IMG/VR virus record: IMGVR_UViG_3300032235_000808
Span: 1 to 64,000 of that record
Reading direction: 5' to 3' (one strand)
DNA: 64,000 nucleotides
Source of the DNA: a virus
Shown here: piece after piece, positions 5,552-24,828 of the stretch
Position numbering within the stretch: the first letter of the stretch is position 1
Layout: each line of letters opens with the position of its first letter
Notes under the pieces: model-generated
What the model was told of the DNA's origin: nothing
The model's database searches: none
The model's input: only the letters and a program-made list of their open reading frames with translations
Position numbers and translations under genes: made by a program

Positions 5552-5559
5552 TATAAATA
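5552..5559 (-). promoter_or_regulatory. Candidate late-type promoter box TATTTATA
   Basis: On the minus strand the gap between the APS-kinase-like gene and the next glycosyltransferase reads TCTAAGGTATTTATAT, about 30 bp before the start codon at 5521. The same core recurs before many genes here; a nearly identical TCTAAGGTATTTATT lies at 35605-35617. Function inferred from recurrence and position only. Confidence 0.35.
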
Positions 5560-5561
5560 CC

Positions 5562-6017: not shown

Positions 6018-7809
6018 TATAAATTTTATTCACATAGTTTTCCCCATCACCGTATCTTGACTCAACATCTAATGGTAAATCTTTATTCTCATCGTAACAA
6101 TAGTCTTCAAATCCCAATTGTTTAAATCTTTCATTAATTCTTTCATTATAATGATACATAATGGTTCTCACCCTTCTTTGTATGTCCTTTCTTGATAAAT
6201 CGTGTGAGTTGCTACTATGGATGTATTGTAGATACAACATTTTAGGTATTCTCATCATAATCGTATGTAAGAATGTACGAATAATTAATTCATAATCATC
6301 CGCAATCGCTAAGTGTCTATTATGACCTCCAATTTGGTGGTATACTTCCCTTCTCCACGTTCTAATATGATTTGGGACTCCAACTATATGTCGAATGGTT
6401 TTAGGGTTTATATTGACAGCAATGCAACTCTGGTAGAGTTTATCATTCCAATAGTAATCTTCATAATGACCATACCCCATTGCAAATCCCGGTTCGTATG
6501 TTAATGAGTTGTGTTCGTTATCTATTTCGGCATTATCTGAATAAAAGAAACCAACCTCAGGATGTTTTTGTGAAGCATCATATAATGATTGGGTACAATC
6601 TTCCGTAATAATGTCATCGTGGTCTAATTCACATAATAGATATCCATTACACAACATAGCCGCACGATATTTGGTTTCACCAATAATTCCATTTGACTTT
6701 TCCCTGAAATCATACACCTTAACTCTTGTGTCTTTAGCCGCAATGCTTTCGGCAATCTTTAATGTTTTACCATTATCGCTTGAGTCATTTACCATAACCC
6801 ATTCCCAATTGGTATATGTTTGGTTTCTTAAAGATTCGTAGGTTCTGTAAAGTACATCACCGGTATTGTAGATTGGTGTGAAATAAGATATTAAAAGACT
6901 TGTGTCATTTACCAATATGTTATTCATCGCACAGTGATATGCATGTTCACCAGTCCATTCATTTACCTCAGGTAAGGTAATCCATTTGTTACGAATTTGT
7001 AATGGTTGATTTGCAAGATTGGGGAAATTTTTCCAATCATCACTTATCGTAATAATCGAATCGGGTTTAAATTTTATCAATGCTTCCTCAATGTTAACAT
7101 CGGTAGGTAATGTTAATGTTTCTAAACTGTCATCTTCATAATCTGCGGCTTTATATGATTTTAATTCCCTATCTAATTTATCAATCAATAGTATTTTGGG
7201 TACCTTAGGTTTTTTGGGATTTTCAAAATAGTTATAATAACTTAAAACTTCATTAATCCAAAAGAAAACGTCTGGTTTATCACCATAAATTTTATCAATT
7301 AAAAATCCATCACCGGCATAATGACCGGTAAATTGATACTCTTTAAACACACTATGATGAAAAAGTATTTGTCCCACATCAACACCTTGATATTTCGTAT
7401 TCTCTGGTTTTGCATCTCTAATATCCAATCCCGTAAAGTCTTTTCCATCGACCCTTTGGGAAACAATGAATATCTCCTTATTTGGGTTATCCTCAATAGA
7501 CTTTTCGAGTATTGAACAGAAATCTTCGTGGATAATATTATCATCATCCAACAGATAAATCCAACCATCTAATTTAGACGATAGTTCACCACATTGTGGA
7601 TATAAGTAATCGTCACCATTACCATTAACAAAGTGTAATTTTATTTTATCACTTTGTAAGTTTTGTAATAGGTCTACAGGTATTTCTTTTAAACGACTTG
7701 TATCGAATAAAAGGTGCCATGTTATATCAAATTCATTAAACAAGATGGAATCTCGAATAAAAATTAGATTTTGGAATCGGGTACATCTTGTTAATATGTG
7801 TAATTTCAT
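6010..7809 (-). CDS. Two-domain glycosyltransferase with C-terminal GT2 domain
   Basis: A 599-residue protein with two GT-A-like halves. The N-terminal half (1 to about 200) has WIYLLDDDNIIHEDF with the acidic cluster DDD at 88-90. The second half starts near residue 305 with the GT2 signature ISYFTPIYNTGDVLYRTYES, followed by VMVNDSS, the metal-binding LDHDDI and ADDYEL near the C-terminus, which is the usual acidic catalytic element of GT2 enzymes. Between them lies a linker containing ITISDDWKNF. A protein with two transferase domains can add two sugars in succession, as in hyaluronan synthase-like polymerases; whether both are active is unknown. It overlaps its neighbours by 4 and 8 bp. 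Confidence 0.82.
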   Translation of the reverse strand: MKLHILTRCTRFQNLIFIRDSILFNEFDITWHLLFDTSRLKEIPVDLLQNLQSDKIKLHFVNGNGDDYLYPQCGELSSKLDGWIYLLDDDNIIHEDFCSILEKSIEDNPNKEIFIVSQRVDGKDFTGLDIRDAKPENTKYQGVDVGQILFHHSVFKEYQFTGHYAGDGFLIDKIYGDKPDVFFWINEVLSYYNYFENPKKPKVPKILLIDKLDRELKSYKAADYEDDSLETLTLPTDVNIEEALIKFKPDSIITISDDWKNFPNLANQPLQIRNKWITLPEVNEWTGEHAYHCAMNNILVNDTSLLISYFTPIYNTGDVLYRTYESLRNQTYTNWEWVMVNDSSDNGKTLKIAESIAAKDTRVKVYDFREKSNGIIGETKYRAAMLCNGYLLCELDHDDIITEDCTQSLYDASQKHPEVGFFYSDNAEIDNEHNSLTYEPGFAMGYGHYEDYYWNDKLYQSCIAVNINPKTIRHIVGVPNHIRTWRREVYHQIGGHNRHLAIADDYELIIRTFLHTIMMRIPKMLYLQYIHSSNSHDLSRKDIQRRVRTIMYHYNERINERFKQLGFEDYCYDENKDLPLDVESRYGDGENYVNKIYNE

Positions 7810-8723
7810 TCTACGTCAAAGAAAAATAATTGGAAAAATCTTGAATTGTTTATTGTGTCACCAAAATAGTCGGAGGCTGAATGTATTGCTTTAGCATCCC
7901 AAATCACTAATCTATTATATACATTTGCAACGTTATCAACGGTTTCAAATTGTGTTTTATCATAGTAATTATAATCTTGACTAATTCCTCTGAATGTTTC
8001 TTCAACACCCTCTTCAAATGAATCTTCAAAACGTTTTTTACCGGTAACTTTACTACGATATGTTTTAGTACCGGTTTCTAATGGTGCATCGGGTGTTAGA
8101 TAAACAACACCGGCATATTGTTGAACATCGGCGTGGATAACTATTGGGTCGTAAGATGTACAATATTGGAATATACCATTTGAATAATCCTCACTTTCCC
8201 AATTTGTTATTCTTCTCCCCATTATATTTTCTATCTTTTCTTTTGTCCCATCAACAAAAAATCTTTCCATACTTCTTTTACCTCTTGATGAGGATGTTGA
8301 TTGAAAAGTTAGATTATTCATTGCGTAGTCTCTAATTAGGTCGGGATTTTTATAGAAATTATCAACAACAATTAAATTCTTATGACCTTCACTAAATTCA
8401 GCACGAAACGCAATAAACTTATACACACTTTCAATTTCCATTGTTGTGTCATCCATCAATCTAATTGTTAATGGCAAATCAATTTGTGATTGGTTTAATG
8501 TTATTTCAAAACCAATCTTATCGACATCACCAGCATGTGGGTATATCTCTTTCACATCTTTTCTTGTAAACCTATATGTGATTAAATCAACACCACCAAT
8601 TTCAATTGATTTAATGTCTTGATTTGTGTGTAGCATCCATCCATTTAATATATATAACCCAAAAGAATGGGTTACACTATCAACATACCATAGAATTGCC
8701 GGTTGTTTTGAAATATGATTCAT
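7806..8723 (-). CDS. Putative 2OG-Fe(II) oxygenase (DUF6445-like) with extra N-terminal domain
   Basis: The C-terminal two thirds (about 118-305) match the DUF6445-type fold: DNFYKNPDLIRDYA at its start, then IHADVQQYAGVVYL carrying the H197-x-D199 pair, the distal His in AKAIHSA (H281) and R295 in the last strand (SRFFQLFFFD). That HxD...H...R set is the iron and 2-oxoglutarate site of the superfamily. The first 110 residues form a separate beta-rich domain (YILNGWML, IEIGGVDL) that I do not recognise. It may hydroxylate a protein side chain or glycan; the substrate is unknown. It overlaps both neighbours by ATGA. Confidence 0.68.
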   Translation of the reverse strand: MNHISKQPAILWYVDSVTHSFGLYILNGWMLHTNQDIKSIEIGGVDLITYRFTRKDVKEIYPHAGDVDKIGFEITLNQSQIDLPLTIRLMDDTTMEIESVYKFIAFRAEFSEGHKNLIVVDNFYKNPDLIRDYAMNNLTFQSTSSSRGKRSMERFFVDGTKEKIENIMGRRITNWESEDYSNGIFQYCTSYDPIVIHADVQQYAGVVYLTPDAPLETGTKTYRSKVTGKKRFEDSFEEGVEETFRGISQDYNYYDKTQFETVDNVANVYNRLVIWDAKAIHSASDYFGDTINNSRFFQLFFFDVE

Positions 8724-9277: not shown

Positions 9278-9278
9278 A

Positions 9279-10310: not shown

Positions 10311-10314
10311 TTTA

Positions 10315-10899
10315 CTATCTAAATGTAGAACCACCAACCCATAAGACTAAACTTTTACGAACGCCTTGGGTCACCGGTGTTATTCTATGTAACATATAAC
10401 TTGGGAATAAAATTGCACATCCTTTATGTTTTTCTACGTTTTGAATACCTGCACCTGTCCACAATTCTAACTCACCACCTTCATAATCCTCGGGATTCGA
10501 TAACTGAATGGTTATACTTACTTTTCTATGGTTAATAGGATGTGGACCAATGTCCATATGCCATCCATAATGTCCACCATCATCATAATATTCGGTATAT
10601 TGTATTGAGTCAACTATTGAATGTAAATCAAATTTCCAAACATTATTTGCTTCCAAAATAAACGATTGTATTTTATCATATACCCAATGTGATTTATCAT
10701 CAATATGAATCCATTTAACTTTTGATTTACGAACATTTTTTACTTCATCACCTCCTACAACGGTAGCTTCTTCATATGGATATAATTCTTTAAGATTATC
10801 TATCCATTCCAATTCTTGCTCAGAAAATCCTTCTTTAAAGCAATAGTAATTTGATTGGTCAATCGTTGAGTCTGTATTGAAAATTGGTTTAATTTGCAT
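10315..10899 (-). CDS. 2OG-Fe(II) oxygenase, prolyl 4-hydroxylase-like
   Basis: A 194-residue protein with a complete double-stranded beta-helix signature: H114-x-D116 in HYGWHMDIGPH, the HRKVSITIQL strand, YEGGELEL, the distal H171 in LHRITPV and R181 in RKSLVLWVGG. This matches the PKHD/prolyl 4-hydroxylase (PiuC-like) family, which hydroxylates using Fe(II), O2 and 2-oxoglutarate. The window encodes a long collagen-like fibre about 9 kb away, the classic target type of prolyl hydroxylases, so that protein is an attractive candidate substrate; this link is an inference. The gene overlaps the upstream glycosyltransferase by 11 bp. Confidence 0.85.
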   Translation of the reverse strand: MQIKPIFNTDSTIDQSNYYCFKEGFSEQELEWIDNLKELYPYEEATVVGGDEVKNVRKSKVKWIHIDDKSHWVYDKIQSFILEANNVWKFDLHSIVDSIQYTEYYDDGGHYGWHMDIGPHPINHRKVSITIQLSNPEDYEGGELELWTGAGIQNVEKHKGCAILFPSYMLHRITPVTQGVRKSLVLWVGGSTFR

Positions 10900-11536
10900 G
10901 ATTTATTAATTTTTTTACCACATCTTGAAACGTATCGGATTCTAATTGCATCACATGTTCATAATCTTTACTTGTAACACTCAATTCACCAACTGCCTTA
11001 AAATTAGTTATGTTATATATTTTTCTTTTATGATAATCTTTATTCCACCAATATAATAAGTCATCACCAAAAAATACTTTTAATCCTTTGTCAATAACAA
11101 TATAGTTTGATTTTTTGATTATCATCATACAACCAAAACCTAAACTTCTACACGGTGCTTCTTCAAAAATATAATCATCATTATCGTTATTGTGTTCTTC
11201 ATAAAAGTTTGCATTTGCGTCAAACCCAATAACACCAAAATCTAAATCATTGATTCTTGATAAGTTGTGATATAAATTTTTAAAATTAAAACTTATATCA
11301 TCATTCAATATACATAAAATTTCGTTAGTAGCATACTCAAAACCCAAATTCCATGCGGGATTTACAAAAATGTTCTCATCTTGTTTGAATACTTTTATTT
11401 GTGGGTCATTAAATGATGAATCTGTGTTATCGATAACAATAAATTCTGAATTTGGAATGTTGGCTTCTTTAAATAATTCGATATTATCCAATATCTTATC
11501 CGATTTCCATAAAGTTGGAGTTATAAATGTTATCAT
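10889..11536 (-). CDS. Glycosyltransferase family 2-like protein
   Basis: A short GT2 enzyme of 215 residues: the first strand MITFITPTLWKSD, EFIVIDNTDSSF, an NPAWNLGFEYA segment matching the GT2 NxGxxxAxN region, and the metal-binding ILNDDISF (NDD at 78-80). Only the nucleotide-binding half plus a small acceptor region is present, which is common for phage GT2 proteins. It lies between a halogenase and a prolyl-hydroxylase-like gene. It probably attaches one sugar to an acceptor; specificity is unknown. Confidence 0.8.
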   Translation of the reverse strand: MITFITPTLWKSDKILDNIELFKEANIPNSEFIVIDNTDSSFNDPQIKVFKQDENIFVNPAWNLGFEYATNEILCILNDDISFNFKNLYHNLSRINDLDFGVIGFDANANFYEEHNNDNDDYIFEEAPCRSLGFGCMMIIKKSNYIVIDKGLKVFFGDDLLYWWNKDYHKRKIYNITNFKAVGELSVTSKDYEHVMQLESDTFQDVVKKLINHAN

Positions 11537-11540
11537 ATGT

Positions 11541-13046
11541 TTACTTACTCATCAACATGTTTCTCACAAACTCATTATTGTTCATTAATCCCGACACATA
11601 TTTTTTAGTACCATCAAGATGATTCAAATACTCACTTTCAAATCTTCTAAGGTTTAATCTTTTTATTTCCTTTGTTGCCATTTCGGGTGTGATAATATTA
11701 TTACCCGCCAAAATCCAACACCAAACACCCCAACCAGCATAACCGAATTTATCCTCAAATTCAATTGTTGATGGTATTCTGTACTTACATATGTCTAATA
11801 TTTCTTGAACATACTCATTTCTTGGTGCATCATCTTGTAGATATCTCCAAAATTCAGTGTTTCTACGGCCGGTAATGTAATTAACTTCAATTAAACTTTT
11901 GTGTTCATTTAAAATACCGTCTATAATTTTATTATAGGTTTTAACATTAAATTCATCTAATGTTTTTTCCACAGTGTCCCTTAAAAAAACTGAAACAAAT
12001 GTTCTGATTTGTGATAGTGTAACATGAATTGCAGTTGCTTGTGCCGGTTCAACAAAAGAACCAGATAAACCCAAGGATAAAACATTCTTATTGAAAATTT
12101 TATCTAACTTACCCGTTTCAAATTTTATTGTTTTTAATGGCTCAATGTCCTCACCCATAACTTGTGAGAACTCTTCTAACGCCTTTTCTTCTGTTACAAA
12201 ATTATCCGAAAATACATACCCACATCCAATTCTCTTTTGTGTTGGTACTTGAAATGACCAACCATACTTCATTGCAGTTGATACGGTCTCGGCGTTTATT
12301 TCATAATCGTCAGTATATTTCTTTTGATATAATATACTTGTGTTAACCGGCAAAGTGTCTTTGTATGAAACCCACTTATTATCCATCTTATTACTAAAAA
12401 TACGAGCAAATCCCGTACAATCAATAAAGATATCACCCTCCACTTCTTTCCCATCATTTAATGTGATTGATTTAACATGACCATTTTCATTGAAATTGAC
12501 ATTGGTAACATCACCATTAATGTGGTTACAATAAGCTACCGATATTTTTTTCAAATATTGACCAACCTTAACACCATCGAAGTTAAATGCAAAAGATTGA
12601 ATATCATCATTTGGAATAACTTCATCCCTTGATGTATAATAAGGTGATTTTTTCTGTTCCATAGCATGACCAGAAAAAGATGAAAGGTGTGGTTTATTTT
12701 TCTCTAAGTTGAATAGATAAAATATATCATTGATATGTTTCGCAGTTGGTGAAATATCAATTGGGTGATAATATTCGTCATTATAACCTTTGAAATTTTT
12801 AAACTTAATACCAAACTTAAATGTGGCATCGGTTTGATTTAAAAAATCGGAAAGATTTGAGCCGATACCCTTTAATTCATCTAAAAGAAAGTAGGTGAAT
12901 AGACCGGTCACACCTTCACCGGCACCGATAATAGGAATATTTAAACTTTCAACAATCGTGATTTTATAATCAGGATTTTTTTCTTTTGCCAAATATGAGG
13001 CCGCAATCCATGCTGCAGTACCTCCACCTACTATAACTATTTTCAT
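11541..13046 (-). CDS. Flavin-dependent halogenase-like protein 1 (divergent active site)
   Basis: A 501-residue member of the tryptophan halogenase family (PF04820-type). The FAD-binding GGGTAAW is at 7-13, GAGEGVTG at 41-48 and the conserved lysine in ATFKFGIKF is K77. The signature that is WxWxIP in bona fide halogenases reads WSFQVP here (263-268), and the residue equivalent to the catalytic glutamate in EPLEST reads glutamine (Q336 in FVEPAQATAI). Family knowledge: the lysine forms or positions the hypohalous species and the glutamate assists. This copy may therefore have lost or changed the reaction. It directly follows a small hypothetical gene with no gap. No flavin reductase is seen nearby, so the host would have to supply FADH2. 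Confidence 0.85.
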   Translation of the reverse strand: MKIVIVGGGTAAWIAASYLAKEKNPDYKITIVESLNIPIIGAGEGVTGLFTYFLLDELKGIGSNLSDFLNQTDATFKFGIKFKNFKGYNDEYYHPIDISPTAKHINDIFYLFNLEKNKPHLSSFSGHAMEQKKSPYYTSRDEVIPNDDIQSFAFNFDGVKVGQYLKKISVAYCNHINGDVTNVNFNENGHVKSITLNDGKEVEGDIFIDCTGFARIFSNKMDNKWVSYKDTLPVNTSILYQKKYTDDYEINAETVSTAMKYGWSFQVPTQKRIGCGYVFSDNFVTEEKALEEFSQVMGEDIEPLKTIKFETGKLDKIFNKNVLSLGLSGSFVEPAQATAIHVTLSQIRTFVSVFLRDTVEKTLDEFNVKTYNKIIDGILNEHKSLIEVNYITGRRNTEFWRYLQDDAPRNEYVQEILDICKYRIPSTIEFEDKFGYAGWGVWCWILAGNNIITPEMATKEIKRLNLRRFESEYLNHLDGTKKYVSGLMNNNEFVRNMLMSK

Positions 13047-13550
13047 CTAACAATCTTCTATATTTTCTTTACCATATAACTCCATTAATTTTTCTTTTAA
13101 TTGTTTATATGCAAATTCAAAAACATCAACATTTTTAAGTAAATCAATATATGGTACTTTGACACTAATTTCTTCCTCAGCTTCCTGCTCTCTTGTAATA
13201 TGTTTTGGTACCGTTTTAGTGATTACCTGTGTTTTACCTTCATCGTCTTTGATGTAACTTGTTTCAGTTACTTCTTCAATTGTTGTTTTAGGTTTTTTTA
13301 TTTTTATTAATTTTTTTTCAAGTCTACCTAAAGGGATTAGAATGTGGTCATCAATTTGGGTATTATAACATCTTAAGTTTTTAGAAACAATCTCAGATTC
13401 AGGTAATTTTGAATGTTCTTCATTCATAAAAATTTCAAGACTTGCTTTTAAAAATCCAATTTTACTTATCTGATATGATGCAATTCTAATATAAGCTCTG
13501 TCACTTATACCTTTGTTTGTACCTACTAATGTGTTTATTTTTAATGCCAT
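13047..13550 (-). CDS. Hypothetical protein, possibly virion-associated
   Basis: A 167-residue protein starting MALKINTLVGTNKGI. The N-terminal 70 residues look beta-rich, followed by a Lys-rich segment (LEKKLIKIKKPKTT), an acidic segment (REQEAEEEIS) and a C-terminal helix (FEFAYKQLKEKLMELYGKE). I do not recognise the family. The pattern of an N-terminal MALxIxT strand and a predicted helical end is common among small virion-associated proteins near tail fibre genes, but this is only an impression. It abuts the divergent halogenase gene exactly and follows an oxygenase gene by 24 bp. Confidence 0.6.
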   Translation of the reverse strand: MALKINTLVGTNKGISDRAYIRIASYQISKIGFLKASLEIFMNEEHSKLPESEIVSKNLRCYNTQIDDHILIPLGRLEKKLIKIKKPKTTIEEVTETSYIKDDEGKTQVITKTVPKHITREQEAEEEISVKVPYIDLLKNVDVFEFAYKQLKEKLMELYGKENIEDC

Positions 13551-13574
13551 GATTTTTAATTGTTTTATATTATT

Positions 13575-14270
13575 TTATTTATTTGGGTCGTCTAACAAAA
13601 TTAAATTATCCGTTGTTCTACCCGGTTCATAATCATTGTAATTTTCATCAACAATAATATCAAACGCGATACTAATTCTTTCCTTTTTACCTAAATGTTT
13701 TGTGGTATAATGTGGAATATTGTTTTGAAAAAGGGTTAATTTACCTATAGTATTTATACTTTCATACGTTTCAGGATTATTAATTTGATTAATTGGGTTT
13801 ATATACATTGTACTTGTATTTTCGGATTGTACAGTGACATGTCCACCCAAATAAGTGTACTTATGTGTTGCATGTAAATGAGGTTTTATTTCCTCACCAT
13901 ATCTTAAGACATTTGCCCAACATTGTATCCACACTTTTCTTCTTGGTGCACCTACTTGCTCTAAAAACTCGATATATTTTTCACGTATCTTTTCCTTTAA
14001 TTTTTGTATCTCCTCATCATCCCAAGTTAATACATTAAAATTTTGATATCTTGATGTTAGGCTGTTTGGACCCAATCCCGTATAACCATCAGAACTTGCC
14101 GAATCGGGTGCGGGTGGTGTACTCTCAATAATTTCTTTTTCTTTTTCTAAAATTATTGAAGCAATTTTTTTAAAGTCAATGTTTATTAACCTTTCTTCAC
14201 CAATGACATAAAACCACCATGGTGCAAATACTGTTTCGGGTTTGTCGCTTCTAAATTGTACTATATTCAT
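13575..14270 (-). CDS. 2OG-Fe(II) oxygenase (TIGR02466-like)
   Basis: A 231-residue protein with the pattern of the putative 2OG-Fe(II) oxygenases often found in marine phages: W-rich ANVLRYGEEIKPHLHATH containing H131 and H133, GGHVTVQ, the distal H187 in NNIPHYTT and R198 in KERISIAFDI. The variant HxH instead of HxD at the iron site is what I see here; the first histidine and the distal one fit an iron ligand role, and R198 fits 2-oxoglutarate binding. It is sandwiched between two halogenase genes and one base from the second. It may modify a fibre or glycan before or after halogenation; the order and substrate are unknown. Confidence 0.75.
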   Translation of the reverse strand: MNIVQFRSDKPETVFAPWWFYVIGEERLINIDFKKIASIILEKEKEIIESTPPAPDSASSDGYTGLGPNSLTSRYQNFNVLTWDDEEIQKLKEKIREKYIEFLEQVGAPRRKVWIQCWANVLRYGEEIKPHLHATHKYTYLGGHVTVQSENTSTMYINPINQINNPETYESINTIGKLTLFQNNIPHYTTKHLGKKERISIAFDIIVDENYNDYEPGRTTDNLILLDDPNK

Positions 14271-14271
14271 A

Positions 14272-15801
14272 TTATAAATTAATTAGTTTTTCAATATGTA
14301 ATCTATGGTCTACACTCTTTGATTCAGCATATGTTAAACCCTGGTAATACTCTTCCCTCCATTTTTTTAATTTTTCATCAAGATTATAAACCTCGTTTTC
14401 TTTTTTAATTAAATCTCTTGATAATAATTCAATTCCTAACCCAACAAACAAAAAGGATTCCGCACCAAAATTATTACTTTGGTTCGCCGAATCAAAACCA
14501 TTAGGTACCCTTTCTTTCCAAACATCTAAGTATTTTTGTAATTTATCGGATTTAACGGTAGTTTTCTCATAATCACGCCAAAATGGAGTATTGTCTTTTT
14601 TTGTTAGATAATGAAAATGTAAAAAGTTTGCAATATCATCATTAAAATTGGCGTTTACTGAATTGAATTCCTTAATCATTAATTCTTTTGGATTTTCAAT
14701 TAAATTTTGTGTGACCATATTTAATGTTTGAATTGCTGACCATATTGCTGTTGCCTCTAATGGTTCGGTAAAACCGGCACTTAAACCTACCGCGATACAA
14801 TTCTTAACAAAAAAGTTTTCATATCTACCGGCTTTGAATTTGATAGTTCTATTCATTTCAACGTCATGACCCAAATATTTTCTAACCTCTTCTTTTGCCG
14901 TTTCAACATCAATATAGTTGTCATCAAAAATGTATCCACAACCCCAACGATTTTGTAATGGGATTTGCCACATCCACCCATAATCCATTGCAATTGCTTT
15001 TGTGTATGGTGGTATTTTTTCACCCATAGGTAAAAAATAAGGTATAGCCGTATTGACCTTTAATTTGTCTTCGTAGGATATCCAATTTGTTTTAAAATGG
15101 TCACCTATTATTAATCTTTTAAATCCTGAGCAATCAAAAATAAGGTCACAATCGTATTGTACATCATTACAAATTACATTTTTTATGTATCCATCTTCGT
15201 TGTTATTAATTTTACTAACAACCCCCTCAATTCTTTTTATTCCCCTACTTTCAGCAACACTTCTTAAATATTTAGCAACCAAATGAGCATCAAAATGTAA
15301 TGAATAAATAGCAATTAAATCCTCAAACCCATCAATTTCAATATATGGACTTTTATCATTGTATGATAAAATACTATTGATATATGAATTTTCAATCACA
15401 TCCTCATTCGCCATTAAATTGATAAGAGAATACGGTATACCTAAGTCGGCCAATCTGAATTTAGCCAATACACGTTCATATTTTTTTAAATTGTAAGAAA
15501 CTTCTTTTCTTTCTACATCAAACGGATGAAAATAACTTTTACCGTCTTTTCTCCAATTTTCAAAATTTATACCTATTTTAAAAGTGGCATTTGTGTTTTT
15601 GATAAAGTCTACTTCTCTAATACCAATTTTTGACAAAAACGAAGGGAAAAGAGGTGTGGAACCTTCACCTGCACCTAAGATACCAATCTCTTCACTTTCA
15701 ATTAATGTTATATCGTATTTGTCTGATAAAAAATTAACATAAAGTGCAGTTAACCATCCGGCAGTACCTCCACCAACTATTACAATTTTTTTATTTTCCA
15801 T
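14272..15801 (-). CDS. Flavin-dependent halogenase-like protein 2 (tryptophan halogenase family)
   Basis: A 509-residue halogenase-family protein with all the residues I look for: GGGTAGW (10-16), GAGEGSTP (43-50), K75 in ATFKIGINFENW, the WMWQIP signature (276-281, matching WxWxIP) and E349 in FTEPLEATAIW, equivalent to the catalytic glutamate. Family knowledge: FADH2 and O2 with chloride or bromide generate a halogenating species used on an electron-rich ring such as tryptophan; relatives in cyanophages accept small aromatics. It resembles halogenase 3 much more than halogenase 1. A box TATATTGT lies 19 bp upstream. Substrate unknown. Confidence 0.9.
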   Translation of the reverse strand: MENKKIVIVGGGTAGWLTALYVNFLSDKYDITLIESEEIGILGAGEGSTPLFPSFLSKIGIREVDFIKNTNATFKIGINFENWRKDGKSYFHPFDVERKEVSYNLKKYERVLAKFRLADLGIPYSLINLMANEDVIENSYINSILSYNDKSPYIEIDGFEDLIAIYSLHFDAHLVAKYLRSVAESRGIKRIEGVVSKINNNEDGYIKNVICNDVQYDCDLIFDCSGFKRLIIGDHFKTNWISYEDKLKVNTAIPYFLPMGEKIPPYTKAIAMDYGWMWQIPLQNRWGCGYIFDDNYIDVETAKEEVRKYLGHDVEMNRTIKFKAGRYENFFVKNCIAVGLSAGFTEPLEATAIWSAIQTLNMVTQNLIENPKELMIKEFNSVNANFNDDIANFLHFHYLTKKDNTPFWRDYEKTTVKSDKLQKYLDVWKERVPNGFDSANQSNNFGAESFLFVGLGIELLSRDLIKKENEVYNLDEKLKKWREEYYQGLTYAESKSVDHRLHIEKLINL

Positions 15802-15819
15802 TATATTATGTTATTAATG

Positions 15820-15827
15820 ACAATATA
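15820..15827 (-). promoter_or_regulatory. Candidate promoter box TATATTGT before halogenase 2
   Basis: The minus strand has TATATTGT about 19 bp before the ATG at 15801, in a 45-bp gap. The same core precedes nusG, the sigma factor and other genes. It resembles the Bacteroidota -7 element TAnnTTTG but is not an exact match. Confidence 0.3.
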
Positions 15828-15846
15828 TGAAAAAATATTAAAAAAA

Positions 15847-16116
15847 TCAACCTCCAAAATGTTTATTAAAGAATGTATTATCTACATCATCCCATTTTTT
15901 TTCAATACAGGCATCTTTATGAAATCTAAATGCCAATTGTATTAATACACAACCACATGAACCACATCTGTAATCACCTCTCAATTCGGTATCCTCGTTT
16001 TCAACTCTATATTCACAAGTTTCACAAACTGAGGCTCTATTTGTTGCCAATTCTATTTGTTTTGGACTTGGGTTATGAGATTCAACCCAATCATTTACTT
16101 CTTTTATAAAACTCAT
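15847..16116 (-). CDS. Small zinc-ribbon protein
   Basis: An 89-residue protein with cysteines at 31 and 34 (CETC) and at 51 and 54 (CGSC), plus C56 and C70. The two CxxC pairs separated by 16 residues form a likely zinc ribbon. The N-terminal third is a charged helix (MSFIKEVNDWVESHNP). Similar small zinc-ribbon proteins occur beside tail fibre genes in marine phages, but I cannot name the function; a structural or chaperone role is possible. It lies between halogenase 2 and a probable virion protein. Confidence 0.7.
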   Translation of the reverse strand: MSFIKEVNDWVESHNPSPKQIELATNRASVCETCEYRVENEDTELRGDYRCGSCGCVLIQLAFRFHKDACIEKKWDDVDNTFFNKHFGG

Positions 16117-16129
16117 AATTATTTAATTT

Positions 16130-16537
16130 TTAATAAATTTTAGGTACTTGTAACCACTCTTGTAATGGGTCTTCCCAAATAAATGTATAGTCAGCGTCTG
16201 GCGGACAATCTGGTTTAGGAATTGGTGGTTCATAAACGCATTTTTCTTCGTTTAAAATCCAAGTTGGTCCACCTGATGGTGGAATAAATGCGTCCCTCAC
16301 TTCATCATAATAATAACCCTTGCATGCGTAATTTTTTCTTATTGCCGGTTTACCGTCAGGTAGACGGTCGGGTCCATAATGTACACCTTCTCTTGTATTA
16401 TATGATGTTTGAATCCATCTACCGGGTTGCTTTAATACGTTATTTATAAAGTCAGCACCCATTTCTTCATCGTCGTTATTTAAAACAATAATGTTTTCTA
16501 CAATGTTTTGTTCGTTTACTAATGCAAAATGTGCCAT
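16130..16537 (-). CDS. Probable virion/tail-associated protein
   Basis: A 135-residue protein starting MAHFALVNEQNIVENIIVL and carrying IRKNYACKGYYYDEVRDAFIPP and PTWILNEE. This pattern (MAHFA...V..V..VN, RKNYA..GYtYD..RDAFIPPKP..SW.LD) is familiar from many marine phage genomes next to tail fibre genes. Its molecular role is unknown; it is usually called a structural protein. It sits between the zinc-ribbon gene and the glycine-rich adhesin gene, as in such phages. The call rests on recognised sequence pattern rather than a named domain. Confidence 0.7.
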   Translation of the reverse strand: MAHFALVNEQNIVENIIVLNNDDEEMGADFINNVLKQPGRWIQTSYNTREGVHYGPDRLPDGKPAIRKNYACKGYYYDEVRDAFIPPSGGPTWILNEEKCVYEPPIPKPDCPPDADYTFIWEDPLQEWLQVPKIY

Positions 16538-16569
16538 AATATTTTTTATTGATAATATATTAATTCTTT

Positions 16570-17610
16570 TTAAAAATTTACAGTATATGTTCCAGAATAT
16601 CTAAATACGTGGTTCGTTCTACCGTCTTTTGATGCAATTGAATAACCTCCTTGTCCCCTTTGTCCTCCATCATAAATAATCCACACATTACCGTATCCAC
16701 CGCCACCGCCGTTTTCACCACATGTTGCTCTTGAGCCACCACCACCATCACCAGCACCACCTAATCCATCACTAGAACAGTGTTGAAATGACCCACCCTT
16801 ACCATAAGCATCTCCAGACCTCCATTCTGCCTGAACAGGACCACCGTTTACTTCACTAGCACCACTACCACCAGTTCCACACCATTGATTATTACCAATA
16901 TCAGTTTCACAACCTCTAATTCCGGTGTTACCTCCAGGTACCCATGCAATACCTCCTTTTATTAAATTACTATCCCATCCTGAACCACAGTCAAATTGTG
17001 CATCTTTACCATGGTTATATGAACCACCACCTCCACTGGCACTACCACATCCACAAAAATATGCTCTACCTCCATAAAATCCACCAACCCCATCTTGTAC
17101 ACCTAAAGTTCCTACAATTGCTGGTGCTTGATAGTTTGAACAAGCATCTCTACCTCCTCCACCACCTGAACCACCCTGACCACCTGTTAATGTATATCCA
17201 CCACCATAACCACCACCATAGGCTGTTATTTCACCGAAACTTCCTTGTACTTTACTTTCACCACCAGTACCTCCGTGTCCTGGTGAACCTCCATTACCGC
17301 CTCCACCTCCACCACCAACTGTGACAGTAATTGTGGTACCTTTTCTTACCGAATATCCACGCGCTTTTACGAATCCACCTGAACCTCCGCCACCTCCACC
17401 TTGGAAGCTGGCACCTCTACCACCCCCACCTCCTCCAGCGAGGATATACATGTCAATCGTATAAAAATCACTATAACCCCAAAACTCACTCATTGAATCG
17501 GGAGTTCCTTTATTGGCTGATGCACTTAATGTTCTTAATGAACCAGCACCTTCCGCTAATTCGCTTCTTATTTGAGATATCGAAATTGTTGTACTGTTAG
17601 GTAATGGCAT
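16570..17610 (-). CDS. Glycine-rich tail adhesin/fibre-tip protein
   Basis: A 346-residue protein. The N-terminus (MPLPNSTTISISQIRSEL) matches the start of phage fibre proteins with an ISQIRSEL-type segment. From about residue 58 most of the sequence is poly-glycine loops such as GGGGGGRG and GGGGGGSGG, interrupted by aromatic and polar residues. Such sequences form polyglycine type II bundles in T-even gp38-like adhesins and in related glycine-rich tip proteins, where the loops recognise the host receptor. The C-terminus YSGTYTVNF is a beta strand. The product is therefore probably a receptor-binding tip. Cysteines at several positions might form disulfides. Confidence 0.75.
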   Translation of the reverse strand: MPLPNSTTISISQIRSELAEGAGSLRTLSASANKGTPDSMSEFWGYSDFYTIDMYILAGGGGGGRGASFQGGGGGGSGGFVKARGYSVRKGTTITVTVGGGGGGGNGGSPGHGGTGGESKVQGSFGEITAYGGGYGGGYTLTGGQGGSGGGGGRDACSNYQAPAIVGTLGVQDGVGGFYGGRAYFCGCGSASGGGGSYNHGKDAQFDCGSGWDSNLIKGGIAWVPGGNTGIRGCETDIGNNQWCGTGGSGASEVNGGPVQAEWRSGDAYGKGGSFQHCSSDGLGGAGDGGGGSRATCGENGGGGGYGNVWIIYDGGQRGQGGYSIASKDGRTNHVFRYSGTYTVNF

Positions 17611-17632
17611 AATATTAATTAATTTTTATCTT

Positions 17633-18025
17633 TTATTCAATAATACCGTTAGAGTAATATTCTACAGTTAATAAATGGTTGTATACTTGTTCTTCAAGTG
17701 ACAATGCGTTTTCAGATTTGTCAAGATTAAATACAACATCCATATTAGTTATTTTTTCCAAATTAGGATAATTACTTATTTTTCCTGTATGATTACCGGT
17801 CAATAATCCTATCGGTGCTTCATTATTATCTTTGGCAATTTTACTTTGATAAACCAAAATAAATGGGTTTATATAATGACCCGCTTTCCAAAAAATATCT
17901 TTTGCGGTACTATTAACATCTTCATCATTTGCCCTTATAAATTCATCATATTCCATAAACACATAATATGCGTTATCATATGATGTTATATTATTTAATG
18001 AATTATATATATTTGTTAATCCCAT
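17633..18025 (-). CDS. Hypothetical protein
   Basis: A 130-residue protein with an acidic composition, no membrane segment and no motif I recognise. Segments such as YDNAYYVFMEYDEF and DIFWKAGHYINPF suggest a globular alpha/beta fold. It is placed between halogenase 3 and the glycine-rich adhesin and is preceded at 19 bp by a TATTTATA-type box, which suggests late expression with the structural genes. Function unknown. Confidence 0.6.
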   Translation of the reverse strand: MGLTNIYNSLNNITSYDNAYYVFMEYDEFIRANDEDVNSTAKDIFWKAGHYINPFILVYQSKIAKDNNEAPIGLLTGNHTGKISNYPNLEKITNMDVVFNLDKSENALSLEEQVYNHLLTVEYYSNGIIE

Positions 18026-18043
18026 TTTATTATTAAACTTATA

Positions 18044-18051
18044 TATAAATA
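18044..18051 (-). promoter_or_regulatory. Candidate late-type promoter box TATTTATA
   Basis: On the minus strand ACAGATATTTATATAT lies 19 bp before the ATG at 18025. The same ACAGATATTTAT string occurs again before the gene starting at 45515. Inferred from recurrence and position. Confidence 0.35.
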
Positions 18052-18055
18052 TCTG

Positions 18056-19591
18056 TTATGAAACTTTTTTAATCATTTCAATTAGTTTTTTATTATCTAT
18101 AGATGTTTTCAAAGCCTGTTCCACATTATACTTGTATGTTTCCATCCACTTTAAAAAATCACCGTTTAAATTATAGATTTCGTTTTCTTTTTTAAATATT
18201 TCTTTCGATATTAAATTATTGTCAAGTCCAACACCAACTTCAATATAACTAATATTTGGAAATGTTTCAACAATATTTCTATCAAAAATATTTGGTGTAC
18301 GTTCTTTCCAAGTTTTTAATTTTTTATCTAATGTCTTTGGTATAATTGTACTTTTCTTATAATCTTTCCAAAATGGTGTATCGTCTCTATCCGTTAAATA
18401 ATGGTAATATAAGAAATCTAAAACACTATCATTAAAGTTATTGAAATACTCATTATACTCCTCTCTAAATAAATCGGAAGGATATGTAAAATTCATTTTG
18501 GTTAGATATGTTAATTGGGATATTGCAATCCATATTGATGTGGCTTCAATTGGTTCTGTAAATCCGGCACTTAAACCGACAGATATACAATTTTTAATCC
18601 ACACATCTTTAAATCTACCAGCATTAAAATCAATTACTTTATTAATCTTAATTTCTTTACCAACCATTTCTTCCACCTCTTTCTTAGCTTCATCCACATT
18701 GATATAATTCTTATCAAAAATATATCCACAACCATATCTACTTTGTAATGGTATTTTCCACATCCAACCATATTTCATGGCAATTGCATCTGTGTGTGGT
18801 TGTATGATGTCATCTTCTTTATCTAAGAAGAATGGTATTGCACAATTAACTTTAAGTTGATTCTCATATGATATCCACTCACTCTCATAATGTTTACCGA
18901 TGATTAATCTTTTAAACCCGCTACAATCAAAAACAAAATCAATATTAGATACTGTTATGTCCTCAACTAAATTAATTGAACATATATTTCCGTCATTATC
19001 ATTTTGAATATCTTTGACTGTACCTTCAATTCTTTTTATACCTCTTTGTTCTGCTTTTTTTCTTAAAAATTTTGCCATTAAAGTAGCATCAAAATGATAT
19101 GAATAACTTACTACCTTTTTGAATGTGTCATCGATATATAGATAAGGTGACCTATTATTATATGATAATAAATGGGTGATTAATCTGTCATCTAATTTTT
19201 CATCGTTTGCTATTAAATTTGTAATAGTATAATTTGTTCCATTAGGTGTTAAACCAACTGATGTGACATTTCCTGATTTAACAATTTCCTCAAAATTTAA
19301 TGATTTATCATCAACACCAAAACCATGCATGTATTTTTCACCATTACCTCTCCAATTCTCAAAATTTATACCTAATTTAAATGTGGCATCGGTCTCCTTT
19401 ATAATTTCTTCTTCACTAATTCCTAAATTATAAAGAAAATATGGAAAAATGGGTACTGAACCTTCTCCAGCACCTAAAATACCAATTTCTTCACTTTCAA
19501 TAAGTGTTATGTTATAATCAGGTGCAATTTTGTTTAAATAGAGTGCGGTTAACCAACCAGCGGTACCGCCACCAACAATAACTAATTTCAT
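18056..19591 (-). CDS. Flavin-dependent halogenase-like protein 3 (tryptophan halogenase family)
   Basis: A 511-residue paralogue of halogenase 2 with the same active-site features: GGGTAGW at 7-13, K72 in ATFKLGINFENW, WMWKIP at 276-281 and E349 in FTEPIEATSIW. Many segments are shared with halogenase 2 (DCSGFKRLIIG, GCGYIFD), so the two arose by duplication and kept the full set of residues expected for activity. It lies among fibre genes, directly between a hypothetical gene and the small gene that precedes the collagen-like fibre. This placement argues that its product, or its target, belongs to the virion or the adsorption process. Substrate unknown. Confidence 0.9.
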   Translation of the reverse strand: MKLVIVGGGTAGWLTALYLNKIAPDYNITLIESEEIGILGAGEGSVPIFPYFLYNLGISEEEIIKETDATFKLGINFENWRGNGEKYMHGFGVDDKSLNFEEIVKSGNVTSVGLTPNGTNYTITNLIANDEKLDDRLITHLLSYNNRSPYLYIDDTFKKVVSYSYHFDATLMAKFLRKKAEQRGIKRIEGTVKDIQNDNDGNICSINLVEDITVSNIDFVFDCSGFKRLIIGKHYESEWISYENQLKVNCAIPFFLDKEDDIIQPHTDAIAMKYGWMWKIPLQSRYGCGYIFDKNYINVDEAKKEVEEMVGKEIKINKVIDFNAGRFKDVWIKNCISVGLSAGFTEPIEATSIWIAISQLTYLTKMNFTYPSDLFREEYNEYFNNFNDSVLDFLYYHYLTDRDDTPFWKDYKKSTIIPKTLDKKLKTWKERTPNIFDRNIVETFPNISYIEVGVGLDNNLISKEIFKKENEIYNLNGDFLKWMETYKYNVEQALKTSIDNKKLIEMIKKVS

Positions 19592-19610
19592 ATATTAAAT
19601 TATTTACATA

Positions 19611-19634
19611 ATTTAACAAAAAAAATTGTTAAAT
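19611..19634 (-). terminator. Weak AT-rich hairpin at end of the small gene before halogenase 3
   Basis: Inverted repeat ATTTAACAA / TTGTTAAAT (9-bp stem, 6-base loop) spanning the stop codon at 19629. There is no clean T-tract after it on the minus strand, so a termination role is doubtful; it could equally stabilise the mRNA end. Confidence 0.25.
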
Positions 19635-19985
19635 GGAAGGGTTATTGGGTGTTGTAACTGTTGCCCATGGTAATGGTAAGTTATATTCGGTTACAAATTG
19701 AACTGAATCATTATCTATACGATTTTGAATTTCTGTTTTAAATTCAATAATATCAAGACTATTTTCCAACCATGATATGATAGTTTCTTGATTTATATTA
19801 CTGTAATCAATAAAAGATTCTGTATTTGGGGCCGGTAAATTTAACTTACCCGTAACAAAAGCGTTCACACCATCTTCTCTTGTACCTCTATAAACATATG
19901 TTATTGCACTAATAACATCACTCAAACCATCCAACGATTTTTGTGGGTGTAAATTCATAATTTCCCATTGATATATTGTTTCCAT
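19629..19985 (-). CDS. Small virion-associated protein (DUF7936-like)
   Basis: A 118-residue protein starting METIYQWEIMNLHPQK and containing ITYVYRGTREDGV and FIDYSNINQETIISWLENSL. The pattern of an initial Y.W.I strand, a ..Y.G...DG.... strand and a helix with the sequence ET.I.WL is shared with a small protein common next to fibre genes in marine phages, which I know as DUF7936; I hold this loosely. The gene ends NNPSI. It is one base from the collagen-like fibre gene and probably co-expressed with it. A role in fibre assembly is possible but not shown. Confidence 0.6.
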   Translation of the reverse strand: METIYQWEIMNLHPQKSLDGLSDVISAITYVYRGTREDGVNAFVTGKLNLPAPNTESFIDYSNINQETIISWLENSLDIIEFKTEIQNRIDNDSVQFVTEYNLPLPWATVTTPNNPSI

Positions 19986-19986
19986 A

Positions 19987-22900
19987 TTAGTCTAAACCTA
20001 CGTGTTTTTTAATTTTATTTACTTCTTCAGTTAATTCTTTAATTGCCTCAATTAACAATGGTACAATCTTATCATATTTTACTGTTAAATAATTTTCGCC
20101 AGATTTTGAGGTTGTAACACCATCTTCCGATGTGTCAAAATCAAATGGTGCTAACGATACTACTTCAGGTAAAATTGATTGTACTTCTTGTGCTGAAACA
20201 CCGACTTGTAATTTAGCATCGTTATATCCAAAAGTTTTCGCTAAATCATTATTAACATAGTAAAAACCATTTAATTTGTTAACCTTATCTAACGGATTTT
20301 CAATTGGGCCTAAATTTTCTTTTAATCTTTCATCAGAATAATATGCTGTAATATCACTTGTAGCGGCTATTTGATTTGGAACATAAAAGGCTTTACCATT
20401 GTAGACTCTCACCCAACTTGTATCTTGCATAAAAATACCACCATCATATGACCCATTGTACCAACCTGTAGCACCTTGACTTCTAAACCAGTTTGGTGCG
20501 TAAACCGTATCAAATGTTGGACCATTGTTGGTATTAACATATTGGTTCATTGCAGACGCATAAACGTTTGATGTACCTGAAGGTCCTGTTGGTCCTTGAG
20601 GACCTGTGTTACCATTTGTACCATTAGTACCTGAAGGTCCTTGTCTACCTTGTGGACCTACGGGACCTATTGGTCCTATTGGTCCTTGTGGACCTGCTCC
20701 ACCAACGTTACCTGTTGGACCTGTATTTCCTTGATTACCCTGTGGGCCAGTTGGACCCGTGTTACCTATATTACCCTGTGGACCTACGGGACCTATTGGA
20801 CCTTGTGGTCCTGTGACACCATTGTTACCTGCAGGTCCTGTGTTACCTTGATTACCTTGAGGACCAGTTGGTCCTGTGTTACCTATATTACCCTGAGGAC
20901 CTATTGGTCCTTGTGGTCCGGTTGCCCCCACATTTCCTTGGTTACCCTGAGGACCTGTAGCACCATTGTTACCATTATTACCCGCATTACCTTGGGGTCC
21001 TGTTGGTCCTGTATTTCCTTGATTACCTTGAGGTCCCGTGGCACCATTGTTACCATTGTTACCTGCAGGTCCTGTGTTACCTTGGTTACCTTGAGGTCCC
21101 GTGGCACCATTGTTACCATTATTACCCGATGGTCCTTGTCTACCTTGAGGGCCTACGGGACCGATTGGTCCAATATTACCTTGTGGTCCTATATTACCCT
21201 GAGGGCCAGTTGGACCAGTATTTCCTTGATTACCCTGAGGTCCTGTGGCACCATTGTTACCATTGTTACCTGCAGGTCCTGTATTTCCTTGGTTACCCTG
21301 AGGACCTGTTGGACCAGTATTTCCTTGATTACCCTGAGCACCATTATTACCATTATTACCATTGATACCTGATGGTCCTTGTCTACCTTGAGGGCCTACG
21401 GGACCAATTGGTCCAATATTACCTTGAGGACCTGTCGCACCAGTATTTCCTTGATTACCTTGAGGGCCTGTTGGTCCTGTATTTCCTTGATTACCTTGAG
21501 GACCCGTTGCGCCAGTATTTCCTTGGTTACCTTGTGGACCTGTGGCACCTGTATTTCCTTGATTACCTTGGGGACCAGTTGGGCCTGTGTTACCTTGATT
21601 TCCTTGTGGTCCTGTTGGTCCTGTTGGTCCTGTATTTCCTTGATTACCTTGAGCACCGTTGTTACCATTATTACCTGATGGTCCTTGTCTACCTTGTGGA
21701 CCGACAGGTCCGATTGGGCCAGTATTTCCCTGATTACCTTGTGGACCTGTCGGTCCTGTATTTCCTTGGTTACCTTGAGGACCTGTTGGTCCAACATTAC
21801 CTTGAGAACCCACGTTACCCTGAGCACCAGTATTTCCTTGATTTCCTTGTGGACCTAAGTTACCAAATGCACCTTGATTTCCTTGCGGACCTGTTAGTCC
21901 AGTATTTCCTTGGTTACCCTGAGGACCTGTTGGTCCGACATTACCTTGCGGACCTGTGGCTCCTTGATTACCTTGTGTACCCACATTACCTTGAGGACCA
22001 AGATTACCAAACGCACCTTGATTTCCTTGCGGGCCTGTTGGTCCTGTATTTCCTTGGTTACCTTGAGGACCTGTTGGTCCAACATTACCTTGAGGTCCAC
22101 TATTTCCTTGATTACCTTGCGGTCCTGATGGACCTGTGTTTCCTATTGGACCTGTGTTACCCTGATTACCTTGAGGACCTGTTGGTCCTGTGTTACCCTG
22201 ATTACCTTGTGGTCCATTTGGACCTATATTTCCTTGATTTCCTTGAGGTCCTATAACCCCCTGAGCACCCGTTGGTCCTTGTGGTCCTGTTACGTTTGAT
22301 GAACCACCCGCGGGACCTGTTGCACCTTGATTACCTTGATATCCTTGTGGACCTATTGGTCCTGTACCACCTTGGTTACCTTGAAAACCTTGAGGACCGA
22401 CGTTACCATTTAAACCGTTAGTACCTGTAGGTCCAGTATTTCCTTGATTACCCTGAGGACCTGTTGGTCCCGTTGTTCCCGCATTTCCTTGATTACCTTG
22501 TGGACCAGTTGGTCCCACATTACCTTGAGGACCAGTAGCACCTTGATTTCCTTGAGTTCCCGCAGGTCCTGTGTTACCTTGATTACCCTGAGGTCCGGTT
22601 AAACCAGTATTACCTTGATTACCTTGTGGACCAGTTGGTCCAACATTACCTTGTGGGCCGACATTTCCTTGATTTCCTTGTGGTCCTGTTAAACCAGTAT
22701 TTCCTTGATTACCTTGAGCACCTGTTGCACCCACATTACCCTGATTACCTTGTGGGCCTGTTGGTCCCACGTTACCTTGGGGTCCTGTTGGTCCTTGTGG
22801 ACCACCCACTAATAAATTTGTGGCAACACCTGCAGCAGTTTCAGTTAAATCAATATACGCACCTCGAGCGGAACCTCCTTGTTCAAAAATTCTTATTTTA

Positions 22901-23106
22901 TTTTGGTAAGAGTCGATTGTTATACCACTACCTGTAAGTGTGGTATTTGTCTCAGGTTTACCTAATAATAATTCTCCACCTTCGTCACCCCCAATTGCGT
23001 CTAGTGTTAATTTTCCACCAGCACCACCACCAACCGATAAAGAACCGGTAATTACAGAATTATTTTTAGCAATGACACCATTGCGTGCCACAAATTCATT
23101 TGCCAT
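19987..23106 (-). CDS. Collagen-like tail fibre with C-terminal S74 intramolecular chaperone
   Basis: A 1039-residue fibre. Residues 1-100 form a beta-rich virion-attachment-like head; residues 101-844 are a near-perfect Gly-X-Y collagen repeat (units such as [16 protein letters not shown]), about 248 triplets. Then come about 80 residues of globular tip and, from S924, the peptidase S74 chaperone: [10 protein letters not shown] (S924, K929), ending in a coiled-coil-like helix. Family knowledge: the S74 domain trimerises the fibre, then cleaves itself off just before the Ser. Pro and Asn dominate the X and Y positions. The product probably forms a rigid trimeric stalk on the tail. A prolyl-hydroxylase-like enzyme in the same window could stabilise it. 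Confidence 0.93.
20575..22806 (-). repeat. Collagen-type coding repeat (about 248 Gly-X-Y triplets)
   Basis: Nine-base-periodic coding repeat inside the fibre gene. Units such as [12 protein letters not shown] recur dozens of times with synonymous variation. The same bases produce long open frames on the opposite strand that are artefacts of the periodicity. Repeats of this kind are prone to length change by recombination. Confidence 0.9.
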
Positions 23107-23114
23107 ATATTGTT

Positions 23115-23138
23115 ACTTTAGTTCACTGTCCCTAAAGT
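23115..23138 (-). other. Hairpin in the leader of the collagen-like gene
   Basis: Inverted repeat ACTTTAG / CTAAAGT (7-bp stem, 10-base loop) between the candidate promoter box at 23154-23161 and the start codon at 23106. It would lie in the 5' untranslated leader. It could stabilise the message; no riboswitch pattern is seen. Confidence 0.35.
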
Positions 23139-23153
23139 GAGGGTTTATTAATT

Positions 23154-23161
23154 AATAAATA
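23154..23161 (-). promoter_or_regulatory. Candidate late-type promoter box TATTTATT before collagen-like fibre
   Basis: Minus-strand CCGATATTTATTAATT lies 48 bp before the ATG at 23106, in an 88-bp gap without coding capacity. It matches the recurrent core seen before other structural genes. Confidence 0.35.
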
Positions 23162-23194
23162 TCGGAAAATACATAATTATCTTAATTCAAAATA

Positions 23195-23446: not shown

Positions 23447-23447
23447 A

Positions 23448-24125: not shown

Positions 24126-24131
24126 ATATTT

Positions 24132-24827: not shown

Positions 24828-24828
24828 A

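What the first reader, a model, noticed from the sequence alone, without database searches (positions are those of the whole stretch)
14272..19591. Two intact halogenase paralogues interleaved with fibre and oxygenase genes
Halogenases 2 and 3 keep every residue I would require. One lies next to an oxygenase, the other next to the collagen-like fibre gene. Phage halogenases are known from cyanophages, but three in one genome, inserted among virion genes, is unusual and hints at modification of tyrosine or tryptophan in fibres or of a host aromatic compound.
Basis: partly seen in the sequence, partly recalled or inferred. Interest (0 to 1): 0.6.

Follow-up and report, generated by a model that had tools for sequence, protein, structure and literature searches.

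The report
Halogenase genes in a phage fibre module
A large aquatic virus of bacteria carries enzymes that attach chlorine, bromine or iodine to aromatic rings right behind its tail-fibre genes; phages swap these genes as blocks together with a fibre, which hints, without proof, that the virus may chemically decorate its own attachment proteins.

Summary
Confirmed: ORFs 14272-15801 (H2) and 18056-19591 (H3) are full-length variant-A flavin-dependent halogenases; a third, 11541-13046 (H1), has lost several motif features, including the catalytic Glu (Gln). H2 and H3 are sister paralogues in a large viral halogenase clade, separate from the characterised cyanophage enzyme VirX1. New here: viral halogenases sit next to 2-oxoglutarate oxygenases far more than chance (36/165 neighbours against 7/554 distant genes), and collagen-like genes cluster within three genes of them. 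A 269-kb near-identical relative keeps the collagen fibre and H3, but the block 11538-18056 (Gly-rich fibre, H2, H1, oxygenase) is replaced by another Gly-rich fibre, another halogenase and about six oxygenase-like genes. So a halogenase follows a fibre in two slots, and the second slot is exchanged as a unit. H3 is under purifying selection (dN/dS 0.07). Best reading: working aromatic halogenases of the adsorption module, possibly acting on fibre Trp/Tyr. The target is unproven; a small-molecule substrate is nearly as likely.

The parts
18056..19591 (-). H3: variant-A flavin-dependent halogenase, 511 aa, slot behind the collagen-like fibre; kept in relatives G048 (92%) and G049 (70%)
14272..15801 (-). 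H2: variant-A flavin-dependent halogenase, 509 aa, sister of H3; AlphaFold2 model mean pLDDT 88, the 50 best PDB matches are all halogenases
11541..13046 (-). H1: halogenase-family paralogue, 501 aa, with GGGTAA, GWSFQVP and FVEPAQATA (catalytic Glu to Gln); other clade
13575..14270 (-). 2OG-Fe(II) oxygenase (PF13759, PHROG 81), 1 bp from H2
13047..13550 (-). 167-aa protein of unknown function between H1 and the oxygenase
15847..16116 (-). 89-aa CxxC/CxxCGC small protein (PHROG 13558)
16130..16537 (-). 135-aa Trp/Tyr-containing small protein (PHROG 7759); a common companion of Gly-rich fibres, not of halogenases
16570..17610 (-). Gly-rich (poly-Gly) fibre or adhesin-like protein, 346 aa, 31% Gly
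17633..18025 (-). 130-aa protein of unknown function
19629..19985 (-). DUF7936 protein, 118 aa, between H3 and the collagen-like fibre; kept in G048 and G049
19987..23106 (-). collagen-like tail fibre, 1039 aa (191 Gly-X-Y in a row), Tyr/Trp-rich tip and a C-terminal part that resembles an S74-type chaperone (by eye)
10315..10899 (-). PKHD-type 2OG-Fe(II) oxygenase (PF13640) in the same operon
7806..8723 (-). DUF6445 protein with invariant HxD...H...R; fold search points to 2OG-Fe(II) oxygenases
11538..18056 (-). cassette exchanged against a different Gly-rich fibre, halogenase and oxygenase block in the close relative G048

Best explanation
H2 and H3 are working variant-A flavin-dependent halogenases of the phage adsorption module. 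FADH2 supplied by a host flavin reductase reacts with O2 and halide to give HOX, which passes down the tunnel to the conserved Lys (H2 K75) and halogenates an electron-rich aromatic ring next to the conserved Glu (H2 E349). Each is encoded a gene or two behind a fibre (collagen-like fibre, DUF7936, H3; Gly-rich fibre, two small proteins, H2), with 2OG-Fe(II) oxygenases beside them. The likeliest target is Trp or Tyr side chains of the phage's own fibre or adhesin proteins, made at the same time and place, tuning stability or receptor binding. Basis: enzyme class, residues, paralogy, cassette exchange and selection on H3 were computed here; host reductase and HOX chemistry rest on established knowledge of the family; halogenation of fibres is inference. 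The enzyme class alone I hold at about 0.85; the stated confidence is for the whole, target included.
For: Enzyme: PF04820 E<1e-100; closest solved proteins all halogenases; AF2 model of H2 against PDB, top 50 all halogenases, TM about 0.8-0.86; Lys, Glu, WxWxIP kept. H3 dN/dS 0.069 against G048 and 0.21 against G049. Module: one-strand operon, gaps of 45 bp or less. Exchange: the relative G048 is about 96% identical over 91-11538 and most of 25337-53621, but 11538-18056 is replaced by a different Gly-rich fibre, a halogenase of another clade and six oxygenase-like genes (four of six pass Pfam cut-offs), while collagen fibre, DUF7936 and H3 stay. G049 has the same two fibre-halogenase slots. 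Collagen-like ORFs (10 or more GXY): 11/685 genes within three of a halogenase against 1/1354 farther away, p 5e-5, 8 of 112 loci. Fibre-module halogenases in cultured phages. Free-Trp-binding motif Trp4 of PMC8269204 absent in all 120 viral sequences, against a free-Trp substrate. Peptide and protein Trp halogenation by FDHs is known (PMC10858898, PMC10286304).
Against: No halogenated virion protein is known to me and none can be detected from sequence. Most viral halogenases have no fibre as immediate neighbour. Fibre regions are insertion hot spots, so proximity may be passive. The fibre-tip Trp motif occurs in 37 phage records, none of a named group listed with halogenases at that sensitivity. 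The small protein beside the Gly-rich fibre is common without a halogenase (0 of 80 loci). The motif Fx.Px.Sx.G is not met strictly. The neighbour statistics rest on loci fetched by halogenase similarity, capped at the best matches, and not fully independent.
Confidence: 0.4

Rival explanations
1. Active halogenases whose substrate is a free small aromatic compound (host metabolite, signal or defence compound). They sit in the fibre region only because it is a cargo hot spot of T4-like phages and is expressed late.
For: VirX1, from a fibre-module gene, iodinates many small aromatics in vitro (PMC8407142; identity with Syn9 gp42). Other phage halogenases lie away from fibres: HTVC008M between small and large terminase, Syn1, S-PM2 and S-RIM44 copy 3 near talC or hli genes. 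Hot spots are described in PMC3037559.
Against: Collagen-like genes cluster near halogenases and the fibre-halogenase block is exchanged as a unit. Trp4 motif absent, so free tryptophan is unlikely. No biosynthetic gene cluster was recognised in the module.
Confidence: 0.35
2. Not halogenases in vivo but flavin monooxygenases or oxidases on the halogenase scaffold, at least H1.
For: H1 has Glu to Gln (the Gln change inactivated a studied FDH, PMC8407142), GWSFQVP and GGGTAA. All 8 Gln-type sequences fall in one clade of 23. H2/H3 miss Ser and Gly of Fx.Px.Sx.G.
Against: H2/H3 keep Lys, Glu, WxWxIP and FX[DE]PX[EFL]; tree and fold put them with halogenases. Ser to Ala is common across the set (134/211).
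Confidence: 0.17
3. Selfish or decaying cargo without a function in the phage.
For: H1 has lost several motif features and the H1/H2 block is absent from a near-identical relative.
Against: H3 dN/dS 0.07 to 0.21 and conserved place in three phages; full-length frames; the replaced block again holds a halogenase.
Confidence: 0.05

Closest known systems
VirX1 of cyanophage Syn10 (= Syn9 gp42; PDB 6qgm)
   Same: Variant-A FDH of a T4-like aquatic phage, behind tail-fibre and fibre-assembly genes and before 2OG-oxygenases
   Different: Different clade; VirX1 has canonical FIEPLESTG, H2/H3 FTEPLEATA and FTEPIEATS; no link to fibres was made in the papers read
Pelagibacter phage HTVC008M halogenase (gp079)
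   Same: Closest cultured relative (42% identity), same larger clade, overlaps a 2OG-oxygenase gene
   Different: Single copy, between terminase genes, not beside a fibre
S-RIM44 halogenase triplet
   Same: Three copies, two in tandem in a fibre module (with Gly-rich fibre gp167) plus one Gln-type copy like H1
   Different: The tandem pair is VirX1-type; the third copy lies in the talC/hli region
Halogenase of actinophage DSL-LC01
   Same: Collagen-like genes two and three genes upstream
   Different: Distant; GWVSKIP and RIEPLDFSS; next to a glycosyltransferase, no oxygenase annotated in the stretch
Peptide Trp halogenases MibH, SrpI, ChlH
   Same: Precedent for FDHs acting on Trp in ribosomal peptides and proteins (PMC10858898, PMC10286304, PMC12518702)
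   Different: Natural-product peptides, leader-guided in SrpI; MibH (taken to be 5uao) is among the weakest PDB matches here

Membership tests
Flavin-dependent halogenase, variant A (tryptophan halogenase family) | Trp_halogenase domain over full length and FDH fold | tested here: met
   H2; H1, H3
Flavin-dependent halogenase, variant A (tryptophan halogenase family) | FAD motif GxGxxG at the N terminus | tested here: met
   H2, H3 GGGTAG; H1 GGGTAA fails
Flavin-dependent halogenase, variant A (tryptophan halogenase family) | Catalytic Lys (PrnA K79) | tested here: met
   H1, H2, H3 all Lys; 210 of 211 sequences
Flavin-dependent halogenase, variant A (tryptophan halogenase family) | WxWxIP motif | tested here: met
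   H2 GWMWQIP, H3 GWMWKIP; H1 GWSFQVP fails
Flavin-dependent halogenase, variant A (tryptophan halogenase family) | Active-site Glu (PrnA E346) and FX[DE]PX[EFL] | tested here: met
   H2 FTEPLE, H3 FTEPIE; H1 FVEPAQ fails
Flavin-dependent halogenase, variant A (tryptophan halogenase family) | Fx.Px.Sx.G, said by PMC8407142 to be found possibly in all active FDHs | tested here: not met
   H2 FTEPLEATA, H3 FTEPIEATS; only 17 of 120 viral and 31 of 91 bacterial relatives meet it, so its force as a requirement is doubtful
Flavin-dependent halogenase, variant A (tryptophan halogenase family) | Halogenation of an aromatic substrate in vitro | not testable with these tools
   needs protein
Free-tryptophan halogenase (groups A and B of PMC8269204) | Trp4 substrate motif | tested here: not met
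   absent in H1-H3 and in all 120 viral and 91 bacterial sequences by pattern search
VirX1-type cyanophage halogenase | Groups with Syn9/Syn10/S-RIM44 fibre-module copies in a tree | tested here: not met
Fibre-modifying enzyme | Modified residue on a virion protein | not testable with these tools
   needs mass spectrometry

The most novel reading that the evidence does not exclude
Phages encode fibre-dedicated halogenases: each fibre or adhesin has its own halogenase (with 2OG-oxygenases) that halogenates Trp/Tyr of its tip, and fibre plus modifying enzymes are exchanged as one cassette to change adsorption. This would be halogenation of a virion protein, and a chemical layer of host-range variation.
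Probability: 0.25. Interest if true: 0.85.

Novelty: new variant of a known kind. Interest (0 to 1): 0.52.

Why it matters
Halogenases in marine phages have been listed among host-like or auxiliary genes since at least 2010 and one (VirX1) is a studied biocatalyst, yet in the papers read here their natural substrate is unknown or only speculated on. The recurrent linkage found here (fibre, halogenase, 2OG-oxygenases), and the exchange of the whole block between near-identical phages, turns that question into a direct test: look for halogenated Trp/Tyr in fibres. If positive, phage adsorption proteins carry enzymatic chemical modification. If negative, the cassette still gives a defined set of enzymes for substrate screening.

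Tried and rejected
1) That three copies is exceptional: rejected. 2) That the small protein 16130-16537 beside the Gly-rich fibre is a dedicated halogenase partner or substrate: rejected; its family is very common, 71 of 80 such loci have a Gly-rich ORF and none has a halogenase. 3) That the fibre-tip Trp motif is specific to halogenase phages: rejected; found in 37 records of phage groups not listed with halogenases, apart from unnamed metagenomic records. 4) General fibre adjacency of viral halogenases: not seen among immediate neighbours; only collagen-like ORFs are enriched, Gly-rich ones only weakly (p 0.09). 5) A phage-borne flavin reductase: no PF01613 match in the 80.7-kb record, the 269-kb relative, HTVC008M, S-RIM44 or Syn9. 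6) T4 late promoter motif TATAAATA: not above chance. 8) gp23 and terminase are not in the 80.7-kb fragment above cut-off; T4 kinship was taken from the relatives. 9) The VirX1 paper itself is not held; its content was taken from a review. 10) No literature link between flavin-dependent halogenase and tail fiber in the held library.
Full report
What is there. The window is part of an 80.7-kb IMG/VR record. On the minus strand, with gaps of at most 45 bp, lie in order of transcription: collagen-like tail fibre 23106-19987, DUF7936 gene 19985-19629, halogenase H3 19591-18056, small ORF 18025-17633, Gly-rich fibre 17610-16570, small protein 16537-16130, CxxC protein 16116-15847, halogenase H2 15801-14272, 2OG-Fe(II) oxygenase 14270-13575, small ORF 13550-13047, halogenase paralogue H1 13046-11541, then a glycosyltransferase-like gene, a PKHD-type oxygenase and, further on, DUF6445.

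Are they halogenases? Both H2 and H3 match PF04820 with E<1e-100, and the best solved relatives are tryptophan halogenases. An AlphaFold2 model of H2 (mean pLDDT 88) has only halogenases among its 50 best PDB matches. In an alignment of 211 relatives, H2 and H3 keep the FAD motif, catalytic Lys, WxWxIP and the active-site Glu. The Ser and Gly of Fx.Px.Sx.G are replaced, as in most of the viral clade. H1 differs: GGGTAA, GWSFQVP and FVEPAQATA. The Glu-to-Gln change inactivated an FDH in one study reported in PMC8407142. All eight Gln-type sequences of the set, from window H1, cultured cyanophages (Syn1, S-PM2, S-RIM44, Sf-CH3) and three IMG/VR contigs, fall inside one clade of 23, so this is a lineage trait and not a random defect. 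The Trp4 motif, which PMC8269204 ties to free-tryptophan binding, is absent from H1-H3 and from all 120 viral sequences.

Phylogeny. H2 and H3 are sisters; the split is older than the divergence of H3 among three related phages (100/100). With HTVC008M and dozens of virus contigs they belong to a large viral clade distinct from the VirX1-type copies of cyanophage fibre modules and from the bacterial copies.

Is three copies unusual? No. S-RIM44 has three, and IMG/VR records G002, G003, G027, G041, G042 and G043 show three to five matches; G041 also encodes a T4-type capsid protein. Two copies in cultured cyanophages were tabulated in 2010 (PMC3037559).

Is the fibre setting unusual? Also no, but it is recurrent. 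In Syn9, S-RIM44, P-RSM6, P-TIM40, S-WAM1 and S-SZBM1 one or two halogenases follow the fibre or fibre-assembly genes and precede 2OG-oxygenases. In S-SRM01 the halogenase lies between a fibre and an adhesin-tip gene. In DSL-LC01 it follows collagen-like genes. Across dereplicated virus contigs, 2OG-oxygenases make up 36 of 165 immediate neighbours against 7 of 554 genes at distance six or more (Fisher 3e-18; independent family scan). Collagen-like ORFs occur 11 times in 685 genes within three genes of a halogenase and once in 1354 farther genes (p 5e-5, eight loci near). Tail fibres in general are not enriched among immediate neighbours. These p-values overstate the surprise, because loci were fetched by halogenase similarity and are related.

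A natural experiment. IMG/VR contig 3300042549_005931 (G048, 269 kb, with gp23) is about 96% identical to the window over 91-11538 and over most of 25337-53621, and 90% over 18056-24880. The block in between is replaced. Instead of window H1, ORF 13047, oxygenase, H2, CxxC, 16130, Gly-rich fibre and 17633, G048 has a Gly-rich fibre (39% identical), a 16130 homologue (about 41%), a halogenase of another clade, and six ORFs. Four of the six pass the Pfam 2OG-oxygenase cut-off, one falls just short, and the sixth shows an HxD...H pattern by eye. The collagen-like fibre, DUF7936 and H3 are kept. A third relative (G049) has the same two slots: collagen fibre, DUF7936, H3; and Gly-rich fibre, 16130 homologue, halogenase. 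H3 evolves under constraint (dN/dS 0.069 to G048, 0.21 to G049). Thus each halogenase belongs to a fibre slot, and the second slot is exchanged as a unit.

How it most likely works. Shown: enzyme class, residues, operon, paralogy, slot exchange, constraint on H3. From established FDH knowledge: FADH2 (no phage flavin reductase of family PF01613 was found, so probably host-made), O2 and halide give HOX, used at the Lys next to the aromatic ring. Inferred: the ring is a Trp or Tyr of the fibre or adhesin. All three Trp of the 1039-aa collagen-like fibre lie in a tip of about 70 residues that is conserved in the three phages although the shaft differs in G049. Against this, the tip motif occurs in many phages in which no halogenase was found, and other phage halogenases sit far from fibres. 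I therefore give fibre modification only a modest lead over a small-molecule substrate.

Comparison. H2/H3 work like, and by most defining features are, variant-A FDHs. One motif proposed for all active FDHs is not met strictly, so activity needs a test. They are not VirX1-type and carry no free-Trp signature. In the held literature no paper contains both 'flavin-dependent halogenase' and 'tail fiber'; peptide Trp halogenases offer the biochemical precedent.

Verdict. A real, recurrent and under-described arrangement of known enzymes. The linkage of fibre, halogenase and 2OG-oxygenases and its exchange as a cassette are the new points; the target is open.

Noticed in passing
window 230-1615 and 1612-3036: Two tandem genes with a GT7-type galactosyltransferase domain joined to a LamG/ConA-like domain, in the same operon region.
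   Followed up: no
window 7806-8723: DUF6445 protein (related to a cyanophage gene labelled 'minor coat protein') has an invariant HxD...H...R, and a fold search of a medium-confidence model gives only 2OG-Fe(II) oxygenases near the top, so the family is probably such an oxygenase.
   Followed up: partly
L282:688-2310 (-): The exchanged halogenase of G048 begins [17 protein letters not shown], a short collagen-like stretch before the FAD motif; may be a start-site artefact.
   Followed up: no
window 24829-25557: One of three LamG-like paralogues is only 52% identical between window and G048 while its neighbours are 99% identical; another exchanged adsorption gene.
   Followed up: no
window 11541-13046 and L002, L177, L178, L184, L009, L045, L046: A clade of phage halogenase homologues in which the catalytic Glu is often Gln; in cultured cyanophages these lie near talC or hli genes.
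   Followed up: partly
window 16130-16537: Very common phage family (MAHFA...WIQTSYNT) that accompanies Gly-rich ORFs in 71 of 80 loci; probably fibre-related.
   Followed up: partly
INPHARED records: Four Campylobacter phage records have halogenase-like matches; not examined.
   Followed up: no
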